The translations under genes and the position numbers were made by a program. From contig JAUHYJ010000077.1 of NCBI GenBank assembly GCA_030425785.1, forward strand, positions 1-10,212: a DNA stretch of 10,212 bases, in the 5' to 3' direction. The stretch comes from Acidimicrobiia bacterium. Lineage in GTDB: Bacteria; Actinomycetota; Acidimicrobiia; Acidimicrobiales; Ilumatobacteraceae. The notes under the pieces are model-generated. The model was not told the origin of the DNA, did no database searches, and saw only the letters and a list, made by a program, of their open reading frames with translations. Shown in pieces: positions 200 through 10,063 of this stretch (its first letter is position 1; the number at the start of each line of letters is the position of its first letter).

Positions 200-1369
200 C
201 TACGACATCATCGCGATCATCTTCTTGAACAGGACGAGGTCTTCGCGGGCGTCGGCCAGCGAGCCGGTGTCGAGGACGAGGACACGGTGGTCGGTGCCCA
301 CGTCGGTGAGCGACGACTCGTCGGACCGGGCCCACACGGTCCAGTCGGCGAGGCCGAGGTTCGAGATCCGCTGGGCGAGCCGTCGGCTCGCCTCGTCGAA
401 CCGTGCGAGCAGCGCAGCGTCGAGGTCGGCGGCGTCATAGGGCCGGTCGCCGAGCTCGCGGTGGACCTCGATGAGCGCGTGGTACTGGTCGGGATGGTCG
501 AGCGGGTCGAGCTGCATCGTCAACGCCTGCTCGGCGAGGGTGAGGTCGGACAGGTGGATCCGGAGCGGCAGGTCGCCGTCGCGTGCGCTCGCGACAGCGA
601 CGTCGGCGTGAGCGGTGTAGCGATCGCGCAGTGCCGCGTGATCGGCCGCCGACAGCTTGGTCGCCGCGAAGCGATTGATCGCGGTGCGGCTGTCGATCCG
701 GCCGAGGTTGACGTAGTCGGAGTTCGGGTCGACGATGATCACCGGCAAGTCGGTCTCGTTCAGCAACCGCTCGAGCACGACGCCGAGTGAGAACGTCTTG
801 CCCGACCCGGACTGCCCGCACATGAAGGTGTGGCGGGCGAAGCCCTTGGGGCGCAGGCGGGCCGGCACCGCCGATGATCGCAGCGTGCCGATCTCGAGCC
901 CGGGACCGCCGCCCACGACCCCGTCGAAGTAGGCGGCGACGGTGTCGTCGTCGGCGGGCTCGATCGTCGCGTCGTCGAACGCGCCGACCTCGCCGTCACC
1001 GTCGAGACGGCCGAGCACGACACCGGCGCCTTCGACGACGCGTGCCTGGAGGCTGACGGTCGCGCGCTGGATGCCGAAGTCGTCGACCGGCTCGCGGTCG
1101 GCGGCTCGGTCGTCGGCGACGCCCAGGCCGGCGGGATCGAGCTCGACGGTGATGCCCTGGCGCGAGACGGCACCCAGTTCGTGGAGTTGGACGAGCAGTC
1201 GCTCGCCGTTCGGTGGTGTCACGATCAGCAGGTCGCCGGGCTCGATCGACAGGTCGAACCCGGCGACGAGACGGACGTCGCGCCCGTTGACCGACCACGC
1301 GGCGGTCACCGAGCGGAGCCGTTCGAGGAGGCGGGAGCGGGCCGCCGCGGTCGTCGATCGGTCGGTCAT
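200..1369 (-). CDS. HerA/DUF87-type P-loop ATPase, C-terminally truncated
   Basis: This 389-residue protein resembles HerA/VirB4-type (DUF87) ATPases, hexameric motors that usually translocate DNA or protein. Residues about 25-85 look like the N-terminal HAS-type beta barrel. The Walker A motif GQSGSGKT is at 185-192, followed by the family-typical strand VIIVDPNSDYV (210-220). Residues 230-360 fit the helical insert. A strand VLVLDTGSL (363-371) follows, and the protein ends about 18 residues later. In relatives this is just before the segment carrying Walker B (often DEAH), sensor and arginine-finger residues. No continuation of that kind is readable in any minus-strand frame down to position 1, so the gene looks truncated and probably cannot hydrolyse ATP alone. 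The ATG at 1369 overlaps the TGA of the upstream gene (ATGA, 1366-1369), with AGGAG ten bases before it. The reading frame stays open further upstream to about 2386, but that part is a shadow of the neighbouring gene. Family call confident; truncation likely; function unknown. Confidence 0.8.
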   Translation of the reverse strand: MTDRSTTAAARSRLLERLRSVTAAWSVNGRDVRLVAGFDLSIEPGDLLIVTPPNGERLLVQLHELGAVSRQGITVELDPAGLGVADDRAADREPVDDFGIQRATVSLQARVVEGAGVVLGRLDGDGEVGAFDDATIEPADDDTVAAYFDGVVGGGPGLEIGTLRSSAVPARLRPKGFARHTFMCGQSGSGKTFSLGVVLERLLNETDLPVIIVDPNSDYVNLGRIDSRTAINRFAATKLSAADHAALRDRYTAHADVAVASARDGDLPLRIHLSDLTLAEQALTMQLDPLDHPDQYHALIEVHRELGDRPYDAADLDAALLARFDEASRRLAQRISNLGLADWTVWARSDESSLTDVGTDHRVLVLDTGSLADAREDLVLFKKMIAMMS

Positions 1370-3318
1370 GACGAAGTGGCTCCTACCGGGTCGAGGGTCG
1401 TGGTCTGGTCGTCGCGGGCGGCCGTGGCGTCGCCGTAGAGCAGGGTCAGGGCGATGGCGGCGAGTGGCACCGTGAGGGCGTACACCAGTGCTGCGAGTGC
1501 CGAGAACGCCCACAACGGCAGACCGCTGGCGACGATCAGCAACAGCAGCGCCGTGACCAGTGTGAGCAGCGCCACCCCGCCGTTGAGCGCCGTGGTCACG
1601 AGCGCGGTGTGGAACCACCTGCCGCGTACGAGCTCGCTGCTGCGATCGAGCGCGTCCTGGCCCGAGCGGTCTTCGTACATGACCGTCTGGGGGACGAACT
1701 GGTAGCGAACGAGCTGACGGATGCCCCATGGCGCACCCACGAACGACGCGAGCAGTACGAAGACGATGGCGAACGATCGGACGAACGCCCTGGCGAGGTC
1801 GCCGCGCCGAGCCCATGTGTCCCTGATCGCCGTGACCGCCGCGGCGGTGCCGCGCCCGTCGCCGTCGAGGTACTGGGCGACGATCGCGCTGATCACGACG
1901 AACGCGGCGATGTTCGCGATGCTGCCGACGAGCGCCGCCAGCACGAGGCTCGTGCCGCTCGCCCCACCCGCCAGCGACATCAGGCTCGAGACGAACGGCA
2001 CCAGTTCGATGAGCGCGGCGAGCATCCCGGTCACGATCGCCGCGGGGACGTACACGAGCCCGAACAGGATGTACACCGCCGGTGATCGGCGATACAGCGT
2101 GAACGCGGCGCGGACGATCTGGCCGGCTCGTCGCTCGGCCACGACCGGCTCGGGATCGACCGCTGTCCAGTCGGTCCGGCCGACCAGGAAGCGGACGAGC
2201 AGGGCCAGGAGGAGCAGGCCGACGATGATCCGGGCCGGCGACACCGTGAACGTGATGAGGGCGCCAGAGCCACGCTCGACCGCGCCACAGAACACGTCGA
2301 TGACGCCCGCCGCGCTCGAGTCGCCGGCCGGGATGAGCACGCTGTTGTCGCGGAGCTCCTCGAACCACGGCGCCGGCTCGAGCCAACGGTCCTTCGCCGC
2401 CGGCCCGGTCGGCCCGTTGAAGGCCCCGTTCTGGCGCTCGCCCCAGCGGCCTCGGTACGACACCCAGGCGAGCGGGTCGTCGGGGTCGGTGACCTCGTCG
2501 GGCAGCACGACGACCTCGGGTACCACCCGGTCGGACGGCCCCGTCGTGTCGTCACACCCGAATCCCTCGCTCGCGCCGCGGCCGAGGTAGAGCGCGGACT
2601 GGAAGTAGCTCGCGTGCGAACGTGCCGACGAGTAGACGACCGGGCGGTCGCCCTCGCGCGACAGCTTCTCATTGCCCCAGTCGGCACGCTCGCCGCCTTC
2701 GTGCTGCGAGAAGCCGACGGCGACCGGCTCGCCGCGCAGCGCCTCGTCGATCGATGACGCCTCGAACTTGAGGGTGATGCCCTCCCAGTCGCTCTCGTGC
2801 TTGTTGTTCCAGTCGTTGTAGTACCAGTAGAACCAGTACTGGATGAACAGCAGCTCGGGCTCGTCCGGTTGCTGGACGATGTGGGCGTACACCGTTGGCG
2901 TCAGTTGCTCGGCGAAGGCGTCGAAGTCGCGCTCGTAGATGCAGGCCGGTGTCAGGGAGTTGCCGGGGAAGTCGAGGAAGAACCCCTCGCCGAGCCCGAA
3001 CAGGTCGGCCGCACCGGGTGCGCGCATCACGACCGGATCGTTCCGGCTCAGCTGGCGCAGCGCGATCTGGGGGTTGTCGAGGATCATCTCGACCGGCATC
3101 GGCACGAACGGCTCACCGTCGGTGTCGCAGTCCTCCTCCTGCTGCTTGACCATGATGATCGGCGCGAAGCGTTCTGCCAGTTCCTGGGCCGGGCCGGCCG
3201 GCTCGGGCTCTTGCGCGGCTGCTCCGGTGACGACGAGTGACGAGAGCGCGGCGCCCAATCCGGCCGCGAGGAGCACGCCTCGGCACCATGAGGATCCGCG
3301 TGGTCGCTGTCGTGTCAT
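1366..3318 (-). CDS. Secreted Vps62-like domain fused to polytopic membrane domain
   Basis: The product has 650 residues. The N-terminus has a basic start, a hydrophobic stretch (15-30) and an Ala-rich cleavage site near 35 (TGAAA before QEPEP), so the next part should lie outside the membrane. Residues about 48-345 resemble the Vps62-related family: an aromatic run YWFYWYYNDWNNKHESDWEG (161-180), HEGGE (206-210), SHASY (234-238) and a Trp/Arg-rich region near 286-312. A membrane segment at 361-378 leads into a C-terminal domain with hydrophobic segments near 412-437, 456-482, 515-532, 572-599 and 603-628. A DALDRSSELVRGRW motif (555-568) resembles the glycerophosphodiester phosphodiesterase membrane-domain/YciC-like group. 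No catalytic site is recognised, and the role is unknown. The ATG at 3318 is preferred because GGAG lies six bases upstream and a signal peptide follows directly. A 36-residue in-frame extension is basic, Pro-rich and overlaps the upstream gene. It sits 40 bases after the receptor gene and is coupled by ATGA to the ATPase. Confidence 0.8.
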   Translation of the reverse strand: MTRQRPRGSSWCRGVLLAAGLGAALSSLVVTGAAAQEPEPAGPAQELAERFAPIIMVKQQEEDCDTDGEPFVPMPVEMILDNPQIALRQLSRNDPVVMRAPGAADLFGLGEGFFLDFPGNSLTPACIYERDFDAFAEQLTPTVYAHIVQQPDEPELLFIQYWFYWYYNDWNNKHESDWEGITLKFEASSIDEALRGEPVAVGFSQHEGGERADWGNEKLSREGDRPVVYSSARSHASYFQSALYLGRGASEGFGCDDTTGPSDRVVPEVVVLPDEVTDPDDPLAWVSYRGRWGERQNGAFNGPTGPAAKDRWLEPAPWFEELRDNSVLIPAGDSSAAGVIDVFCGAVERGSGALITFTVSPARIIVGLLLLALLVRFLVGRTDWTAVDPEPVVAERRAGQIVRAAFTLYRRSPAVYILFGLVYVPAAIVTGMLAALIELVPFVSSLMSLAGGASGTSLVLAALVGSIANIAAFVVISAIVAQYLDGDGRGTAAAVTAIRDTWARRGDLARAFVRSFAIVFVLLASFVGAPWGIRQLVRYQFVPQTVMYEDRSGQDALDRSSELVRGRWFHTALVTTALNGGVALLTLVTALLLLIVASGLPLWAFSALAALVYALTVPLAAIALTLLYGDATAARDDQTTTLDPVGATSS

Positions 3319-3324
3319 GGGCGT

Positions 3325-3328
3325 CTCC
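3325..3328 (-). promoter_or_regulatory. Ribosome binding site of the Vps62-like gene
   Basis: GGAG on the minus strand lies six bases before the ATG at 3318. It sits in the 40-base gap after the upstream receptor gene and decides between this start and the longer in-frame ATG at 3426. Confidence 0.6.
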
Positions 3329-3358
3329 GACCGTGTGTGGGCAGGTGGGTGCGTGGGG

Positions 3359-5416
3359 TCATGGCTCGGTCGAGGTCGGTGCGATCGTCGAGAGTCGCGA
3401 CGCGCCGGACTCGTCGGCATCCGCATGCCAGTCGTCGGCGAGCACGACCCCGTCGCCGGCGCGTGCGCTCAGTGCGACCGCAGCGGTCACCGGCATGCCC
3501 CAGAGCGTGAACGACACCTGACGGGAGCCGAGCACTCCGGTGGCGACCAGTCCGGCCGACAGGCCGGCGCTCGCCGTCAGGACGAGGCCCTGGTCGGCGC
3601 CGATCTCGGCGACGGTCGACAGCACCGCCTCGGCGAACGTCGCCGCCGCTTCGGCGTCGGTGCCGTCGCGGCCGCGACCGGAGACGAAGAGCTGGTGTTC
3701 GAGGGCGACCTGTGCGCGCTCGACCCCGTGTTCGGCGGCCAACCGGCCGATCTCGCTCGCGAGCCGCGTGGTCAGCTCGAGCACACTGTCCTGCTCGGCT
3801 CCCGACGGGGCCGGGATGCCGCGGATCGAGATCGACACGACCGTGGCCGTGTCGACGACCTCGGCCAGTTCGCGCTCGCCCGACCTGACGCGTTCGACGA
3901 GCGAGTCGGGCAGGACGGTGGCGAGCATCCGGTTGATCCGCGCCTCTTCGTCGTCGATCGCCCGCTCCTGGTCGCGAAGCTGGCCGGCGACGGCGTCGAG
4001 TTGTCGGCCGACGTCTCCGAGCTCGTTGCGGCCGAGGTCGGGGAGGTCTGTCTCGTAGTCGCCGTCGGCGATCCGGCCGGCGGCCTCGACCAGCGGCTGG
4101 ACCGGCCGGGCCAGCATGCGGGCGAGCACGAGCCCGACGACCACGAGGACGGCCAGCAGTACGGCCAGGACGATCGCGATGGCGACGACGAAGCGCATCA
4201 GCTCGTCGCCGGTCTCACTCGTCTGCTGCTCGGTGACGAGGACCCAGCCGAGGTCGGTGACCGCGAGTGGCGACGCCGACGCGATGGTGGCTCGATCGAG
4301 CGGATTGTCGACGCCTCCGACGAACGTCTCGCCGTCGAGCGCCGACGCGACGGCATCGTTGTCGACCTCGTGGATCAGGACCGGCGAGCCGGTGAACTCG
4401 ATCAGCCCGGCGGCCCGCTCGTCGTCGGTGACGTCGGCGAACCGGTCGAGATAGCCGTCGGGATCGTCGAACCACTGGCGCGGCACGGTCCGGAGGCGGC
4501 GATCGCTGCCGACGATGTACGCGTCGCCGGTGTCGCCGAGTCCGAGCGCATCCCACTGCTGGCCGGCCGTGACGATGTCGGTGAGCCGTTCGGTCCGCAG
4601 GACGAGCACCAGTGCACCCACGACCTCCGCATCGTTGCGAACGGCGACCGCCACGTGCAGCACCGGGGCGGCGGAGTTCGGGAGATAGAAGCTCGTGTCG
4701 GCGAGGACCGCCGAGTCGACGGCGGCGCCGTCGAGCTTGCCGACGGCTCGACCGAGCCCGGCGTCGGCGTACGGGCCGTCGAACGCGTTCGTGCCGAGGT
4801 CGACGAACTTCGAGGTCGAGTAGAGCACGTCGCCGTCGTCGGCGTCGACGAAGAGGAGATCGGCGGCACCGACGCTCGCAGCGAGGCCGCGGAGGAAGGC
4901 GTGGTGCTCGGCGTGCGCGGCGTCGTACTCGCTGCTGCCACCGCTGTCGACCAGTTCGGCGCGATCGTCGCCGGCGTTCGTGGCGATGTACTGGTACTGC
5001 AGATAGCGGCCGGCGTCGCTCGTCGGGAGCAACTCGTCGACCGATGGCCGGTCGACACCGGCCGCGTCGTAGCGGCCGACCACGTCGTCGTAGACATCGA
5101 CGACCTGCTCGAGTTGGTCGGGGTCGAGCCCGCTGTCGAGCGCCTGGTAGCCCGCTTCGAGATCGACGAAGGCGTCGGCGACACCAGGGTCGGTGCCGAA
5201 CACGGCGGCCCGCACGAGCAGGCGGTTCATCGCGATCTCGATCGCGTCGGCACGCGAATCCCGGAGCCCCTCGAGCTGGGTCTGCGTGCTGCTGTTGAGC
5301 AGACCTCGCACGACGAAGAAGTTCACCGTCGCCAACAGGATCACCGAGACGAGCCCGAGTCCGACGAGCGCACGCGTGAGACGCGATCGCAGCGAGGTGT
5401 TGCGTCGATCGGTCAT
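3359..5416 (-). CDS. Cache-HAMP receptor with degenerate class III cyclase domain
   Basis: A 685-residue membrane receptor. Transmembrane segment 1 is at about 17-39. A long extracytoplasmic Cache-type sensor (40-405) carries the block LLFVDADDGDVLYSTSK (187-203), the dCache-like GDTGDAYIV (294-302) and a membrane-proximal DLGWVLVTEQ (388-397). Transmembrane segment 2 is at about 408-432, HAMP at 433-485 and a linker with a conserved LP (502-503). The cyclase homology domain spans about 522-665. Aligned by eye to active class III cyclases, the first metal Asp is Ser530, the second is Glu573, the purine-selecting Lys is Gln569, the Asp of Y-D-x-W-G is Thr637, the Asn is Thr644 and the Arg is Ala648. 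The fold landmarks LWG (638-640) and the VATGVLGSR stretch (624-632) remain. It is probably a non-catalytic pseudocyclase that passes a ligand signal to a partner. Its ATG overlaps the TGA of the channel gene (ATGA, 5413-5416), implying coupled translation. Architecture certain; ligand unknown; loss of activity inferred. Confidence 0.85.
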   Translation of the reverse strand: MTDRRNTSLRSRLTRALVGLGLVSVILLATVNFFVVRGLLNSSTQTQLEGLRDSRADAIEIAMNRLLVRAAVFGTDPGVADAFVDLEAGYQALDSGLDPDQLEQVVDVYDDVVGRYDAAGVDRPSVDELLPTSDAGRYLQYQYIATNAGDDRAELVDSGGSSEYDAAHAEHHAFLRGLAASVGAADLLFVDADDGDVLYSTSKFVDLGTNAFDGPYADAGLGRAVGKLDGAAVDSAVLADTSFYLPNSAAPVLHVAVAVRNDAEVVGALVLVLRTERLTDIVTAGQQWDALGLGDTGDAYIVGSDRRLRTVPRQWFDDPDGYLDRFADVTDDERAAGLIEFTGSPVLIHEVDNDAVASALDGETFVGGVDNPLDRATIASASPLAVTDLGWVLVTEQQTSETGDELMRFVVAIAIVLAVLLAVLVVVGLVLARMLARPVQPLVEAAGRIADGDYETDLPDLGRNELGDVGRQLDAVAGQLRDQERAIDDEEARINRMLATVLPDSLVERVRSGERELAEVVDTATVVSISIRGIPAPSGAEQDSVLELTTRLASEIGRLAAEHGVERAQVALEHQLFVSGRGRDGTDAEAAATFAEAVLSTVAEIGADQGLVLTASAGLSAGLVATGVLGSRQVSFTLWGMPVTAAVALSARAGDGVVLADDWHADADESGASRLSTIAPTSTEP

Positions 5417-6984
5417 GACGTCCCCGGGTCGTCGGTGGGTGCGCGGTCGGCGGCTGTGCCGTCGACGCCCGGCTCGGGTGATGCCTCGGCGTCGACGATG
5501 GCGACCAGCGCCTCGGCATCGGCGGCGTCACGTTCGAGCCGGGCTCGCCGGACGACCCGGTGGACGCGTCGTCGCCGGCTCGACGTGATCTGCTCGACAG
5601 CGGCGTTGAGATCGACCGATCGCGAGATGGCGCCACCCACGGCATCGGCTCGCACCGTGATCACGTCGCAGTCCGAGATCGCCACGACGGACACGCCGTG
5701 GCCGAGGACCTCGTCGCGGGCGAGTGACGTGGCGAGGTCGGAAGCCGCCAGGTCGAGCACCGGTGTGGGGTGGCCGTCGATGTCGACGGTGAGCTGGGCG
5801 GACCCCCGCTCGATGAGCACCATGTCGTCGTCACCCGGGTCGAGGATGGTCTCGCCGTTCGCATACCGCGCCGACACCGCGGCACCGGCGAGCTGATCGA
5901 GCTCGTCGTCGCCGAGCTGGTCGAGCAGCGATGAGGTGCGAAGGCCCCGGAGCAGCGACGCGCGATCGCGCTCACCGACGGCGGCGCTTCGCTCGCCGTC
6001 CCACAGGAAGAGATCCTGCGCCGGGCTCGGCAGCGGGACACCGCGTCGGTGCGAGTGGTACCAGACGAGTGAGCCGAAGTCGCTCTTGACCCGTGGGGCG
6101 ATCGTGTAGTCGTCGACCCACATCTGGACCTCGTACCCCATGAGCGGGTCGTCGATCTGGACGACGACGGCGTTCGGGGGTGGGTCGGACAGCACGCCCG
6201 GCGTCGACTCGGCGGCGGCGAGCAGCATCGCCTTCGCGTCGGTCGGCGAGTTGACGTACGCGACCTGGACGGGCACGACGACGCGGTGCAGGCGGGTCGG
6301 CTCGTCGAAGTTCGTGATCGTCGCACCGGCCAGCTGGCCGTTCGGCACGACGACGAGGTCACCGTCGCGGGTCTGGATGCGCGAGCTGCGCCAGTTGATG
6401 TCGACGACCTGGCCCTCGACGTCGTCGGCTCGGATCCAGTCGCCGGGTTGGAACGGCTGGTCGGCGAGCAGCGTGAAGCCGGACGCGATGCCGCCGAGCG
6501 TGTCCTGCAGCGCGAACGAGACGACCAGCGACGTGACGCCGAGCGCCGTCATGGCCGCCGACAGGTCGACGTCCCAGACGCCGGCGATCAGCAGCCATGC
6601 GAGGACGAGGATGAGCACGAGGCGGGGGAACGCGAGCAGCAACCGTGGGACCGAACGGCGGCCGTCGCGGCCGCGGTCGCGAATCCGTTCGATCACGATC
6701 GCGAGCGCGGCCAGCGCCGCCGCGCCCAGAGCGACCACGAGTCCCGAGGCGATCAGCTGGACGAACGGATTGGTGCTCGAGGCGTCGAACAGCACGCGCA
6801 CGAGTGCCCACACGGCGAAGAGCGGGAGCACCCAGTTCCGGACCGCAGCGATCGGGCGCTGGAGCGACGAGTCGCGCTGGCGCAGGCGCTCCTCGAGCTC
6901 GCCGCTGCCGATGATGACGAGCGGGAGCAGGACGACCAGCATCGCCGCCCAGCCGGCGGTCGGGTCGCGGAAGACGTCGGTCAT
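5413..6984 (-). CDS. MscS-type channel with degenerate CNBD-like C-terminus
   Basis: A 523-residue small-conductance mechanosensitive channel homologue with the bCNG (bacterial cyclic-nucleotide-gated) layout. Hydrophobic segments lie near 12-27, 50-66, 74-99 and 113-135. The pore-lining helix is at about 142-170 (SFALQDTLGGIASGF, 156-170), followed by the MscS beta domain with the signature VVVPNGQLAGATITNF (211-226). The alpha/beta domain runs to about 315. Residues about 342-465 resemble a cyclic-nucleotide-binding domain: a helix LLRGLRTSSLLDQL (344-357), then NGETILDPGDDDMVLIERG (376-394). Where active domains have F-G-E and R-x-A-T/S in the phosphate cassette, this one has ATS (418-420) and HGVS (429-432), so cAMP/cGMP binding is doubtful. 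The tail from 466 is basic, then acidic and disordered-looking. It is coupled by ATGA to receptors on both sides, which suggests it is their output. A GAGG lies seven bases before the start. Confidence 0.88.
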   Translation of the reverse strand: MTDVFRDPTAGWAAMLVVLLPLVIIGSGELEERLRQRDSSLQRPIAAVRNWVLPLFAVWALVRVLFDASSTNPFVQLIASGLVVALGAAALAALAIVIERIRDRGRDGRRSVPRLLLAFPRLVLILVLAWLLIAGVWDVDLSAAMTALGVTSLVVSFALQDTLGGIASGFTLLADQPFQPGDWIRADDVEGQVVDINWRSSRIQTRDGDLVVVPNGQLAGATITNFDEPTRLHRVVVPVQVAYVNSPTDAKAMLLAAAESTPGVLSDPPPNAVVVQIDDPLMGYEVQMWVDDYTIAPRVKSDFGSLVWYHSHRRGVPLPSPAQDLFLWDGERSAAVGERDRASLLRGLRTSSLLDQLGDDELDQLAGAAVSARYANGETILDPGDDDMVLIERGSAQLTVDIDGHPTPVLDLAASDLATSLARDEVLGHGVSVVAISDCDVITVRADAVGGAISRSVDLNAAVEQITSSRRRRVHRVVRRARLERDAADAEALVAIVDAEASPEPGVDGTAADRAPTDDPGTS

Positions 6985-9137
6985 CGGGCCGCCTCGTCGG
7001 TGAGCCGAGCGGTGACGGCCGCGCTGCCCTCGGTCGGCTCACCTGCGGTCACGAACTCGTCGGGGAGCTGGGCGCGCACGGTGTCGGACACCAGGATCGT
7101 GCCGTCGGGCGCGGACGCGGCGAGCTGTTCGGCGCGAGCGACCGTGTCACCCCAGACGTCGTAGAGCAGCGCGGCGCGTGCAGCGAGGCCGACCGAGACC
7201 GGGCCACTCGCCACACCGCCGCGCACGGCCAGGCGACCGTCCCCGAGTTCGTCGACGATGTCACGGGCCGCGAGTCCGAAGCCCACGGCGCGCGGCGCGT
7301 GGTCGAGCAGCGGCCGCGTGGCACCGCACACCGCGTAGTAGGTGGCGCCGGTGAGCTTGATGCGTTCGAGCCCGAAGTCGGTGGCGAGCGCATCGACCTC
7401 GTCGACGATCTCGGCCAGGAGGTCACGAACCTGCTGATCGGGCTCGCCACCCACGAGATCGGCGACGCCGTCGAGGGTCAGGACCACGACGCTCGCGTTG
7501 CCGACGTGGTCGAGGACCTCGCCGTCGCTCTCTTCGCTGCGGCGCGCCACGTTGGCGGGCAGGAACTGCCGGAGCAACCCCACCCGTTCCGCGTTCCGTG
7601 CATCGACCGCCGCCTGACGATCGGCGAGCCGCCGGAGCATGTCGTCGACGTTGTCGGCGAGCTCGCGGTACTCGCGTGGGCCGTCCTCCGGGACGTCGAC
7701 GGTCCCCGCCGGCGTCGGCCCGCCGCTGGTGCGGACGCTGCGGAGCCGACGCGCGATCGCCCGGAGCGGGGCGACGATGCGATCGGACCACCGCACGGCG
7801 ACGAAGGTGACGCCGACGACGAAGAGCGCCATCGCGAGCAGCATGTCGCGGGCGTACCGCTCGATCGGGTCGTCGAGTTCGTCCCGGGCGATCTCGCTGA
7901 CGATCGTCCAGTCGACGTCGTCGATCGCGAGCGGCCGGTATGCGGTGCGGACCTCGACGCCCTGGTAGTCGACCGAGTCGACCAGCCCCGGTCCGTCGGC
8001 TGCGGCGTCGACGATGCGGCGGTCGATGGGTTGGACGAGGGCGGTCGTGCCGGTGCGGCTGATCCGACGTCGCTGGTCGTCGCTGAGCTCGCCCGGGCCG
8101 GGCTCGGTGGCAACGGCGAGGAACTCGGCCGGTTCGGTCGCGTAGCGACGCGACGTCGTGCGCATGATGCCGTCCGGCCCGGCGAGGAAGACGTCGCCGG
8201 TCTCGCCGGCACCGTCCCAGTCGTCGTTGCCGGACAGGACCGCGTCGAACTGCTCGACCGACAGTGCTCCGGCGATGTAGCCGATCAGACGACCGTCGTC
8301 GAGGACGGCACTGGCGACGAAGGTGGTGGGCGCCTCGCCCGCCGGCACGTAGGGGGCGAAGTCGCTGAGCCGGGCGCCGCCGGTCGGGTCGTCGGCGATC
8401 GTGCCGAGCAACCGAGCGAGCGCGCTGCCGCTGTGCGGGCCGACGTCGAGGCTCGTCGCGAAGTCGATGCGCTTGCGGAACGAGTACACGATCGTGTTGT
8501 CGCGGGCGTCGACGAGGAACAGGTCGTCGAACCCCGAGATGGTGCCGATCCGACCATACGTCTGGTGGACGGCCGGGTGGAGCGACGAGTACGTCGACCC
8601 GTCACCGGGGTCGAGGACGAGTTCGGGATCGATCGTGGTGCCGGTACCGCCCTCGGCGTCTTCGGCGTCTCCGGCGTCGTCGCCCGGCACGGTGTACGCG
8701 CCCTGCAGGTAGATGGCTTGCGGCGCCGTCGGAACGAGGAACGACGGCCCGATCCGAGTGTTGCGGACGAGCTCGAGGTCGGGGATGACCTCGGCGAGGT
8801 AGAACTCGGTGAGCGCGTCGACCCTCGCACGGTCGGTCGGCTCGGCCCGCAACTCCTCGACGGCGTCGCCGAGGGCGCTGATCGACTCGCCGGTCGCGGG
8901 GCTCGTCGCGAGCGCCTCGACCTCGCGTCGGATCGCAGTGAGCGCGACCTCGACCGCAGTGGCGCGCGACGCCGACACGGAGACGAGCTGGTCGTCGGCC
9001 ACCTCACCGGCGAGGTCACTGCCGCGCATCAGGCCCACCGTCGCCGTCACCGTGAGCGACACGAGGGTGACGACGAGCGCCACCAACGACAGTCGTGTCG
9101 CCAGCGAGATGTTGCCGAGTGGGCGCGGTCGGGCCAT
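6981..9137 (-). CDS. Cache-HAMP receptor with partly degenerate class III cyclase domain
   Basis: A 718-residue paralogue of the receptor on the far side of the channel gene. Transmembrane segment 1 is at about 17-36. The Cache-type sensor (40-428) has DDLFLVDARDNTIVYSFRKR (204-223), GETGDVFLAG (311-320) and VDWTIVSE (408-415). Transmembrane segment 2 is at about 431-449 and HAMP at 450-505. A cyclase homology domain spans about 545-690. This copy is better preserved: the first metal Asp is present (Asp556 in LTLDG), as are the substrate-selecting Lys594 (IKLTG) and Y-D-V-W-G-D-T-V (659-666) with Asp660. However, the second metal Asp is Ala598, the transition-state Asn is Ala667 and the Arg is Gln671. 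Activity as a homodimer is unlikely, though a heterodimer with another cyclase chain cannot be excluded. It starts 19 bases after the SHOCT gene with no clear Shine-Dalgarno, so it may depend on re-initiation. Its TGA overlaps the ATG of the channel gene (6981-6984). Confidence 0.86.
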   Translation of the reverse strand: MARPRPLGNISLATRLSLVALVVTLVSLTVTATVGLMRGSDLAGEVADDQLVSVSASRATAVEVALTAIRREVEALATSPATGESISALGDAVEELRAEPTDRARVDALTEFYLAEVIPDLELVRNTRIGPSFLVPTAPQAIYLQGAYTVPGDDAGDAEDAEGGTGTTIDPELVLDPGDGSTYSSLHPAVHQTYGRIGTISGFDDLFLVDARDNTIVYSFRKRIDFATSLDVGPHSGSALARLLGTIADDPTGGARLSDFAPYVPAGEAPTTFVASAVLDDGRLIGYIAGALSVEQFDAVLSGNDDWDGAGETGDVFLAGPDGIMRTTSRRYATEPAEFLAVATEPGPGELSDDQRRRISRTGTTALVQPIDRRIVDAAADGPGLVDSVDYQGVEVRTAYRPLAIDDVDWTIVSEIARDELDDPIERYARDMLLAMALFVVGVTFVAVRWSDRIVAPLRAIARRLRSVRTSGGPTPAGTVDVPEDGPREYRELADNVDDMLRRLADRQAAVDARNAERVGLLRQFLPANVARRSEESDGEVLDHVGNASVVVLTLDGVADLVGGEPDQQVRDLLAEIVDEVDALATDFGLERIKLTGATYYAVCGATRPLLDHAPRAVGFGLAARDIVDELGDGRLAVRGGVASGPVSVGLAARAALLYDVWGDTVARAEQLAASAPDGTILVSDTVRAQLPDEFVTAGEPTEGSAAVTARLTDEAAR
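8653..8679. repeat. Three tandem 9-bp repeats coding for an acidic loop
   Basis: TCGGCGTCT occurs twice in tandem (8653-8661, 8662-8670), followed by the variant CCGGCGTCG (8671-8679). In the receptor frame this encodes the Asp/Ala/Glu-rich loop around residues 154-162 of the 6981-9137 protein. The segment is absent from the equivalent place in the paralogue at 3359-5416. In-frame replication slippage is the simplest origin. Confidence 0.7.
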
Positions 9138-9156: not shown

Positions 9157-9516
9157 TCAGCCGAGCAACTTGGCCTTGGCGGCTGCGAACTCTGCGTCGT
9201 CGAGGATGCCGGCGGCCTTCATGTCGGCGAGCTGCTGGAGCTTCGCCATGAGATCGTCGCCGGCAGGTGCTGCAGCCGGGGCGGGGGCCGGCGGTGGCGG
9301 CGGCGCCTGCATCGCGTTCATCTGGGCCTGCATCTCGGCCAGTTGGGCCTGGGACTCGAAGGCGGCCTGCTGGGCCGCCTGCTGCTGGTTCGCGGCCTGC
9401 GCCTGCGCTGCCTGGCGCCGGTTCATGGCACCGACGGTCGCGTTGGCGGTGCCGGCGATGACCGCGGTACGGGCCATCGTGCCGACCAGTCCGGGGCGTC
9501 CGATTCGTCGTGGCAT
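9157..9516 (-). CDS. SHOCT-domain small protein
   Basis: This 119-residue protein has four parts. A basic, mildly hydrophobic N-terminus (1-32) contains RPGLVGTMARTAVIAGTA (7-24), a pattern common in actinobacterial SHOCT proteins. Next is a Gln/Ala-rich stretch likely to form a coiled coil (33-70), then a Pro/Ala linker (71-86). A C-terminal SHOCT domain (87-119) has LMAKLQQLADMKAAGIL and DAEFAAAKAKLL. SHOCT domains are short helical elements found at protein ends and thought to mediate oligomerisation or membrane-associated assembly; no enzyme activity is implied. It follows the DUF6325-type gene after 33 bases and precedes the first receptor by 19, so it should be co-transcribed with both. 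The ATG at 9516 is supported by AGGAG seven bases upstream. Domain call confident; biological role unknown. Confidence 0.85.
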   Translation of the reverse strand: MPRRIGRPGLVGTMARTAVIAGTANATVGAMNRRQAAQAQAANQQQAAQQAAFESQAQLAEMQAQMNAMQAPPPPPAPAPAAAPAGDDLMAKLQQLADMKAAGILDDAEFAAAKAKLLG

Positions 9517-9523
9517 GGTGCTG

Positions 9524-9528
9524 CTCCT
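9524..9528 (-). promoter_or_regulatory. Ribosome binding site of the SHOCT gene
   Basis: AGGAG on the minus strand lies seven bases before the ATG at 9516, inside the 33-base gap after the DUF6325-type gene. Confidence 0.65.
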
Positions 9529-9549
9529 GTTCGTGTCGTGAAGGGTCGG

Positions 9550-9981
9550 TCAGTCGAGCGCGGCCAGCTCGTCGAGCAATTCGTCGACGACCATGCCGGG
9601 CACGCGGAAGTTGGCGGCGAGCACGCCGCCCGAGGCGACGATCGCGTCGCGGAACGGCTTGGCCCACGTGTGTTCGAACACGAGCATCGCCGCCGAGCTG
9701 TCGGGCTCGAGGCCCTCGGCGAGGGTGGCGACGTCCTCGTCGGAGATCAGCGACTCGACCTCGTCGAGCAGCGCGGCGAGCCGGGCGACGCTGTCGTCGC
9801 TGCCGACCTCACCGAGCTCGAAGAACTCGACCTCGCTGTCGCCGTCCTTGCGGAGGAACAGCCCGTCCACGATGGAGATGGTCCCCGCCTCGACGAGCCG
9901 TTCGAGCTCGGGCAGGATCTCACCGTTGAACTGGTTCCCTGGGAAACCGATCACGATCACTTCGATGGGTCCGAGTGCCAT
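9550..9981 (-). CDS. DUF6325-type protein of unknown function
   Basis: A 143-residue acidic, soluble-looking protein with no signal peptide or membrane helix. The start GPIEVIVIGFPGNQF (4-18), the block GTISIVDGLFLRKD (33-46), and later AAMLVFEHTWAKPFRDAI (97-114) and GGVLAANFRVP (118-128) match my memory of the DUF6325 family of actinobacteria. These are small alpha/beta proteins often encoded beside SHOCT proteins. No catalytic motif is seen and the function is unknown. The ATG at 9981 is chosen because GGAGG lies seven bases upstream. A 19-residue in-frame extension to 10038 is basic and would place the promoter-proximal hairpin inside the coding region, so I reject it. It is the first gene of the proposed operon, 108 bases after the flippase-like gene. 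Confidence 0.8.
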   Translation of the reverse strand: MALGPIEVIVIGFPGNQFNGEILPELERLVEAGTISIVDGLFLRKDGDSEVEFFELGEVGSDDSVARLAALLDEVESLISDEDVATLAEGLEPDSSAAMLVFEHTWAKPFRDAIVASGGVLAANFRVPGMVVDELLDELAALD

Positions 9982-9988
9982 CTTGCGT

Positions 9989-9993
9989 CCTCC
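9989..9993 (-). promoter_or_regulatory. Strong ribosome binding site of the DUF6325-type gene
   Basis: GGAGG on the minus strand lies seven bases before the ATG at 9981. It is the strongest Shine-Dalgarno in the window and fixes the start of the first operon gene. Five bases at its upstream edge can pair in a short CCGTG/CACGG stem (9993-9997 with 10000-10004), but the 2-base loop makes that doubtful. Confidence 0.7.
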
Positions 9994-10006
9994 CGTGTCC
10001 ACGGTC

Positions 10007-10025
10007 CGCGCCGACCTTCGGCGCG
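10007..10025 (-). promoter_or_regulatory. Perfect 8-bp hairpin in the operon leader
   Basis: Arms 10007-10014 (CGCGCCGA) and 10018-10025 (TCGGCGCG) are perfectly complementary around a three-base loop. The element lies between the flippase-like gene stop and the Shine-Dalgarno of the DUF6325-type gene. No U tract follows, so a classic terminator is unlikely. It may be a leader hairpin or a palindromic protein-binding site. Confidence 0.45.
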
Positions 10026-10034
10026 AACGGGTCA

Positions 10035-10063
10035 ACACTAGAACGCACCGCGAGCCCCGGCCA
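10035..10063 (-). promoter_or_regulatory. Weak candidate promoter for the seven-gene operon
   Basis: On the minus strand TAGTGT (10035-10040) is a fair match to an actinobacterial -10 box. The hexamer 17 bases upstream (TGGCCG, 10058-10063) matches TTGACA poorly. The position is sensible, in the only gap above 100 bases before a long run of close or overlapping genes. The call rests mostly on position. Confidence 0.25.

What the first reader, a model, noticed from the sequence alone, without database searches (positions are those of the whole stretch)
3359..9137. Coupled pseudocyclase-channel-pseudocyclase module
Two Cache-HAMP-cyclase-like receptors flank an MscS channel with a CNBD-like tail, and all three are joined by 4-base ATGA overlaps. 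The classical reading is receptor to cNMP to channel. Here both cyclase domains and the CNBD have lost key residues, so the second messenger may have been dropped and the receptors may gate the channel by direct contact. I know of no described system of this form.
Basis: partly seen in the sequence, partly recalled or inferred. Interest (0 to 1): 0.72.

Follow-up and report, generated by a model that had tools for sequence, protein, structure and literature searches.

The report
Dead-cyclase receptors flanking a channel
Two bacterial sensor proteins whose signal-making enzyme parts have lost their working residues sit in an inherited three-gene unit around an ion channel whose signal-binding pocket has also lost key residues, which suggests that sensor and channel talk to each other without the usual small messenger molecule.

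The parts
6981..9137 (-). rec1: Cache-HAMP-pseudocyclase receptor, 718 aa, first gene of the unit
7896..8537 (-). rec1 dCache_1 match (aa 201-414)
   Evidence: E 2e-9, below Pfam cut-off
7623..7781 (-). rec1 HAMP (aa 453-505)
   Evidence: E 5e-4, below Pfam cut-off
7062..7499 (-). rec1 class III cyclase domain (aa 547-692), catalytic signature T K A D A Q instead of D K D D N R
6981..6984 (-). ATGA overlap rec1/channel
5413..6984 (-). MscS-family channel with C-terminal CNBD, 523 aa
6307..6618 (-). pore helices TM2/3 and beta domain of MscS (aa 123-226)
5572..5970 (-). degenerate CNBD (about aa 339-471); cassette Glu and Arg positions are Ser and His
5482..5616 (-). long C-terminal helix (aa 457-501) with a basic stretch (R470 nearly invariant)
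5413..5416 (-). ATGA overlap channel/rec2
3359..5416 (-). rec2: second Cache-HAMP-pseudocyclase receptor, 685 aa
3971..4129 (-). rec2 HAMP (aa 430-482)
   Evidence: E 1.8e-11
3458..3850 (-). rec2 class III cyclase domain (aa 523-653), signature S Q E T T A

Best explanation
The three genes encode one membrane signalling unit. Periplasmic Cache domains of rec1 and rec2 bind an unknown ligand; HAMP and the cyclase-transducing element pass the signal to pseudocyclase domains that do not make a cyclic nucleotide; those domains, probably as dimers and perhaps as a rec1:rec2 heterodimer, act directly on the cytoplasmic part of the MscS-type channel, most likely its degenerate CNBD and C-terminal helix, and shift its gating. 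Shown: gene order, overlaps, shared inheritance, predicted folds of channel and rec2, loss of catalytic and cassette residues in the members tabulated. Inferred: no cNMP made or bound, receptor-channel contact, effect on gating, heterodimer.
For: Linkage: the channel (E<=1e-40) is in 14 of 221 family genomes and 12 of 397 order genomes, 9 of them new; all 23 have a receptor next to it. Both receptors were found in the same 14 family genomes plus G004, where N runs fill the place of the channel. Overlap of exactly 4 bases at 42 of 47 triplet junctions (the in-frame start nearest to that value was taken). The three gene trees agree: Spearman 0.72-0.90, 10-12 of 15 splits shared over 18 genomes. 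Degeneration: 0 of 55 channel-linked receptors keep all six catalytic residues; cassette Glu in 1, Arg in 36, both in 0 of 146 channels (120 listed of 782 found, plus 26 loci). Selection: in rec1 metal Asp A, Asp B, Asn and Arg rank 147, 124, 182 and 226 of 226 for conservation, while the transducer proline is 0.99 conserved (1.00 in rec2) and the Lys and base Asp rank 33 and 10: signal transfer kept, chemistry dropped. Different residues are lost in different lineages; each of the six is still present somewhere among linked receptors, so the ancestor was probably active and inactivation repeated. Contrast: of 9 relatives found by their cyclase domain, with no channel match in the fetched DNA, 8 keep all six and one keeps five. 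Own-genome control: all 6 PF00027 matches outside the window keep Glu and Arg.
Against: No contact was shown: complexes cannot be predicted here, coevolution was not analysed, and no fused protein was noticed in the lists read. A dimeric receptor and a heptameric MscS channel do not match in symmetry (general knowledge). rec1 keeps Lys and base Asp, so nucleotide binding may still matter. The cassette Arg survives in 36 of 146 channels, and the doublet channels tested score clearly as cNMP_binding. G753 rec2 keeps both metal Asp and its rec1 keeps Lys and base Asp, so in that genome a weak heterodimeric activity is not excluded. The active relatives P0174-P0176 nest among channel-linked receptors in the tree, and their own neighbourhood could not be fetched; if they are channel-linked too, '0 of 55' would not stand for the whole group. 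The 9 unlinked controls were found by similarity to an active cyclase domain, a biased choice, in stretches of 2.3-9.4 kb. MscS channels also open by tension alone.
Confidence: 0.5

Rival explanations
1. Nucleotide-sensing pseudocyclases: rec1 (alone or with rec2) still binds ATP or GTP without cyclising it, and that binding sets receptor or channel state, so the unit senses an outside ligand and cell energy together.
For: Base-recognition Asp 1.00 and Lys 0.92 conserved in rec1 (ranks 10 and 33 of 226) while metal and transition-state residues drift; rec2 mostly lost both base residues (Lys in 7, Asp in 6 of 113 rows), so a rec1:rec2 dimer would have one vestigial pocket.
Against: The same residues may be kept for the fold or the dimer interface; the window's rec1 has lost both metal Asp, which normally hold the triphosphate.
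Confidence: 0.3
2. Classical relay: the receptors still make a cyclic nucleotide by an unusual mechanism, or recruit an active cyclase, and the channel binds it without the canonical cassette.
For: Domain order is that of a cyclase plus a cyclic-nucleotide channel; two doublet channels of the mycobacterial-looking group score well as cNMP_binding (E 1e-14 and 6e-16) and their receptors keep one metal Asp; the cassette Arg is kept in 36 of 146 channels; G753 composite residues.
Against: 0 of 55 receptors with all six residues and 0 of 146 cassettes with Glu and Arg; in the window both metal Asp are gone from both receptors.
Confidence: 0.1
3. Co-expressed but not physically coupled: the channel is a tension-gated valve, and the receptors act elsewhere, for example by pairing with other proteins.
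For: MscS pore and beta domains are well preserved; among 10 neighbour proteins of 7 loci tested, chosen by eye, 3 are Na/H exchangers and 2 sulfate permeases.
Against: The receptor is adjacent in 23 of 23 channel genomes of two scans, doublets keep the same order, and the CNBD keeps its predicted fold after losing its pocket residues.
Confidence: 0.2
4. Decaying relic: the three genes are pseudogenes in the making.
For: Residues lost in all three proteins; rec1 of G162 is split over two frames; 3 of 14 channel matches list one stop.
Against: No stop inside any receptor match listed; many positions are fully conserved; folds predicted with high confidence.
Confidence: 0.02

Closest known systems
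Mycobacterial Rv2435c-Rv2434c pair (Cache-HAMP-cyclase gene beside a CNBD membrane-protein gene; adjacency from gene numbers, recalled)
   Same: Two-gene homologues in four genomes of one genus (G801, G834, G854, G903): receptor then channel, same domains in the two checked with Pfam, except that dCache_1 was found in one of the two. G903 looks mycobacterial (pentapeptide-repeat PPE-like protein and proA nearby). dCache of Rv2435c is in print (PMC4822843, passages read).
   Different: One receptor instead of two; residues lost are others (Asp A and base Asp kept; Lys, Asp B and Arg lost); CNBD less degenerate. That these four genomes are mycobacteria, and that their pair is Rv2435c/Rv2434c, is inferred. 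PMC2447327 names both genes (search listing only; body not readable).
bCNG channels (bacterial cyclic nucleotide gated, MscS superfamily; Caldwell 2010, Malcolm 2012, seen only in the reference list of PMC4560390; content recalled)
   Same: MscS pore plus C-terminal CNBD
   Different: Cassette Glu and Arg are lost here; flanked by receptor genes
Class III adenylyl cyclases of the Rv1625c/Cya type
   Same: Best PDB sequence match for both receptors; same output fold for rec2; transducing element kept
   Different: Catalytic residues lost; Cache-HAMP front
Pseudo-subunits of heterodimeric cyclases (AC C1/C2, soluble guanylate cyclase; recalled)
   Same: A cyclase fold with one altered site used for regulation
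   Different: There the pair is catalytic; here neither receptor keeps the residues

Membership tests
Catalytic class III nucleotide cyclases | two metal Asp, adenine Lys/Asp, Asn and Arg | tested here: not met
   rec1 TKADAQ, rec2 SQETTA; 0 of 55 linked receptors keep all six
Catalytic class III nucleotide cyclases | class III cyclase fold | tested here: met
Catalytic class III nucleotide cyclases | cNMP synthesis | not testable with these tools
   needs an assay
bCNG channels (MscS + cNMP-binding CNBD) | MscS pore and beta domain | tested here: met
   PF00924 E 8.6e-20; Foldseek 7dlu E 6e-16
bCNG channels (MscS + cNMP-binding CNBD) | C-terminal CNBD fold | tested here: met
bCNG channels (MscS + cNMP-binding CNBD) | phosphate-binding cassette with Glu and Arg | tested here: not met
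   Ser and His in the window; Glu 1, Arg 36, both 0 of 146 channels
bCNG channels (MscS + cNMP-binding CNBD) | gating by cyclic nucleotide | not testable with these tools
   needs electrophysiology
Rv2435c-Rv2434c type receptor-channel module | Cache-HAMP-cyclase gene directly followed by MscS-CNBD gene | tested here: met
   rec1-channel order in window; same order in 11 doublets incl. G801, G834, G854, G903
Rv2435c-Rv2434c type receptor-channel module | homologous receptor and channel | tested here: inconclusive
   receptor and channel of G834 match window rec1 and channel at 225 and 150 bits, tree; but G834 is unnamed and no direct comparison with the named M. tuberculosis proteins was made

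The most novel reading that the evidence does not exclude
A second-messenger system that repeatedly dropped its messenger: across Actinomycetota, cyclase receptors coupled to CNBD-bearing MscS channels lost catalysis in parallel while the channels lost the binding cassette, turning receptor and channel into a directly coupled ligand-gated channel, in the triplet with a pseudo-heterodimer of two receptors.
Probability: 0.42. Interest if true: 0.82.

Novelty: new variant of a known kind. Interest (0 to 1): 0.6.

Why it matters
If true, proteins annotated as adenylyl cyclase and cAMP-binding channel in many actinobacteria are neither, and cAMP network counts in those genomes are inflated. It would also be a natural case of an enzyme-messenger-receptor chain collapsing into direct contact, which makes the question of how signalling chains evolve testable by comparing lineages that lost different residues.

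Tried and rejected
Window-only oddity: rejected, the triplet is conserved. Genome-wide loss of cyclase or CNBD residues: rejected. Own-genome PF00211 matches outside the window: 5 on three contigs. C110 keeps Asp, Lys, Asp, Asn and Arg with Thr at the adenine Asp; C829 and C60 keep both metal Asp in one half and Asn and Arg in the other. All six PF00027 matches keep Glu and Arg: four by motif search; L199 and L200, for which one search had hit wrong frames and one search found nothing, by reading the right frame.

Restored activity in a rec1:rec2 heterodimer: rejected for the window (no metal Asp in either receptor), left open for G753. A fused receptor-channel protein was not seen in the lists and loci that I read; no dedicated search for fusions was made. 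Coevolution analysis was judged useless with about 40 pairs and not run. Context of the active relatives P0174-P0176: not found in scans of 397, 228 and 246 genomes.

Papers: nine of ten searches used. None listed a paper on a messenger-free receptor-channel module; subscription journals are mostly not held, so this is weak evidence. PMC2447327 is held with abstract and references only, although the search counts Rv2435c 10 times and Rv2434c 3 times in it.

Rows left out of the 55: receptors cut by contig ends or N runs (G004 both, G025b rec1, G034 rec2, G161b rec1, G312c rec2, the front piece of split G162 rec1). G501 was left out because its match has no cyclase domain. One search used 49 of 61 rec1, 93 of 102 rec2 and 120 listed channel entries. 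Fold searches list what was found only; no family is excluded by absence.

Full report
Close relatives carry names such as Ilumatobacter and Acidimicrobiia. On the minus strand it carries DUF6325, a SHOCT protein, rec1, the channel, rec2, a Vps62-like protein and, by eye, part of a HerA-like ATPase.

Catalytic residues. On the 7yz9 chain I read the two metal Asp, the adenine Lys and Asp, and the transition-state Asn and Arg (roles recalled). Window rec1 has T K A D A Q, rec2 S Q E T T A. Of 22 triplet rec1, 0 keep the first metal Asp; of 22 rec2, 1 does (G753); of 11 doublet receptors, 4 do (G801, G834, G854, G903). None of the 55 keeps all six. In the homologue lists, 3 of 70 rec1 rows are intact, all three the distant P0174-P0176, and 0 of 113 rec2 rows (4 of those rows are gaps there, and a few rows are other proteins). 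The first metal Asp position is also D in P0144, P0150 and P0210, without the full set.

Cassette. In the curated 60-row alignment the Glu after the cassette Gly is present in 1 (G465), the Arg in 11, both in 0. Adding all listed homologues (120 of 782 found) gives 146 rows: Glu 1, Arg 36, both 0. So the Glu is almost always gone, the Arg in about three quarters. The column choice rests on the alignment, on the Gly being kept in 106 of 146, and on G465 aligning as FGE with protein kinase CNBDs.

Neighbourhood. A scan of 221 family genomes found the channel in 14, rec1 in 15, rec2 in 15; the extra genome G004 has both receptors with N runs (959-2539 and 2941-3466 of L109) where the channel would lie. 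A scan of 397 order genomes found 12, of which 9 are new. All 23 have a receptor beside the channel. Further triplets: G726, G753, G755, G761 (same class, other family) and G845 (same phylum, other class). Exact equality of contig length links 19 rec1 and 23 rec2 contigs with channel contigs, ten carrying all three; shifted lengths gave 0.24 coincidences on average for rec1 (49 of 61, 93 of 102 and 120 of 782 entries used). The module is patchy: most genomes scanned lack it.

Junctions. 42 of 47 triplet junctions overlap by exactly four bases (ATGA, GTGA or TTGA); the others are G026 and G034 (rec1-channel) and G156, G271 and G845 (channel-rec2), G271 being disturbed by Ns. The script took the in-frame start nearest to a 4-base overlap, which favours that value. 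The 11 doublets range from a gap of 10 bases to an overlap of four, 4 of 11 at exactly four.

Evolution. In a tree of 58 receptors rec1 (20) and rec2 (22) each form one group at 100/100; doublet receptors and the active P0174-P0176 form the rest, the active ones among the doublets. Over 18 genomes the gene trees of rec1, channel and rec2 agree, so the unit was probably inherited as a whole after an old duplication. All six catalytic residues can be found somewhere among linked receptors: Asp A in the G834 group, Lys and Asp B in rec1, the base Asp in both, Asn in G801, G834 and G971, Arg in G971 and G228. The common ancestor was therefore probably active, and inactivation took different routes (inference; it does not depend on the root).

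Selection. In rec1 (73 rows) the catalytic positions rank 147 (Asp A), 124 (Asp B), 182 (Asn) and 226 (Arg, last) of 226 output-domain positions, while Lys ranks 33 and the base Asp 10. In rec2 (111 rows) all six rank 73-170 of 220. The transducing-element proline is 0.99 conserved in rec1 and 1.00 in rec2. This is what one expects if signal transmission is kept and chemistry is not; it also leaves room for nucleotide binding by rec1.

Controls. Of 9 relatives found through the cyclase domain of P0176, with no channel match in 2.3-9.4 kb of fetched DNA, 8 keep all six residues; the ninth (G759) has Glu for the base Asp. These were chosen by similarity to an active domain, so they show only that intact relatives exist apart from the channel. 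In the own genome all 6 PF00027 matches keep Glu and Arg, and the other cyclases keep metal Asp, Asn and Arg, so loss is particular to this unit.

Mechanism. The best-supported reading is a receptor-channel unit that no longer uses a cyclic nucleotide, with the pseudocyclase domains acting on the channel's cytoplasmic part. Steps shown: linkage, predicted folds, residue loss, conserved transducer. Steps inferred: no synthesis, no binding, contact, gating. My probability for direct contact is about one half; nucleotide-dependent but non-catalytic control by rec1 is the main rival and the two can both be true.

Known relatives. G903 carries a PPE-like pentapeptide-repeat protein and proA near its receptor-channel pair, which points to Mycobacterium, where Rv2435c and Rv2434c are named. 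PMC3961136 (passages) places Rv2435c among mammalian-type cyclases, lists MSMEG_3578 as its counterpart, and says that five annotated H37Rv cyclases have not been shown to be active, without naming Rv2435c among them in what I saw. PMC11205783 (passages) calls Rv2434c a membrane protein possibly in the cAMP pathway. I saw no paper that draws the consequence that both sides are degenerate.

Noticed in passing
window 1366-3426, minus strand: Vps62-like protein (PF06101 E 2.5e-9) with hydrophobic C-terminal stretches directly downstream of rec2; also downstream in the same direction in G001 and G005, on the other strand in G059.
   Followed up: partly
window 9157-10038, minus strand: SHOCT and DUF6325 genes near the triplet in several genomes (G000, G001, G026, G025, G163), on either side.
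   Followed up: partly
window about 200-1300, minus strand: Walker-A containing HerA-like ATPase by eye (SGSGKTFSLG); not searched.
   Followed up: no
L038, L040, L102, L037, L036: Na/H exchangers (3 loci) and sulfate permeases (2 loci) near triplets, among 10 neighbour proteins of 7 loci tested; hints at an ion or osmotic role.
   Followed up: partly
L102 3675-5580: rec1 of G162 is split over two overlapping frames; frameshift or assembly error.
   Followed up: no
P0178, P0179: Chemoreceptors (MCP signal domain) whose matching part is related to rec1, so parts of this receptor are shared among output types.
   Followed up: no
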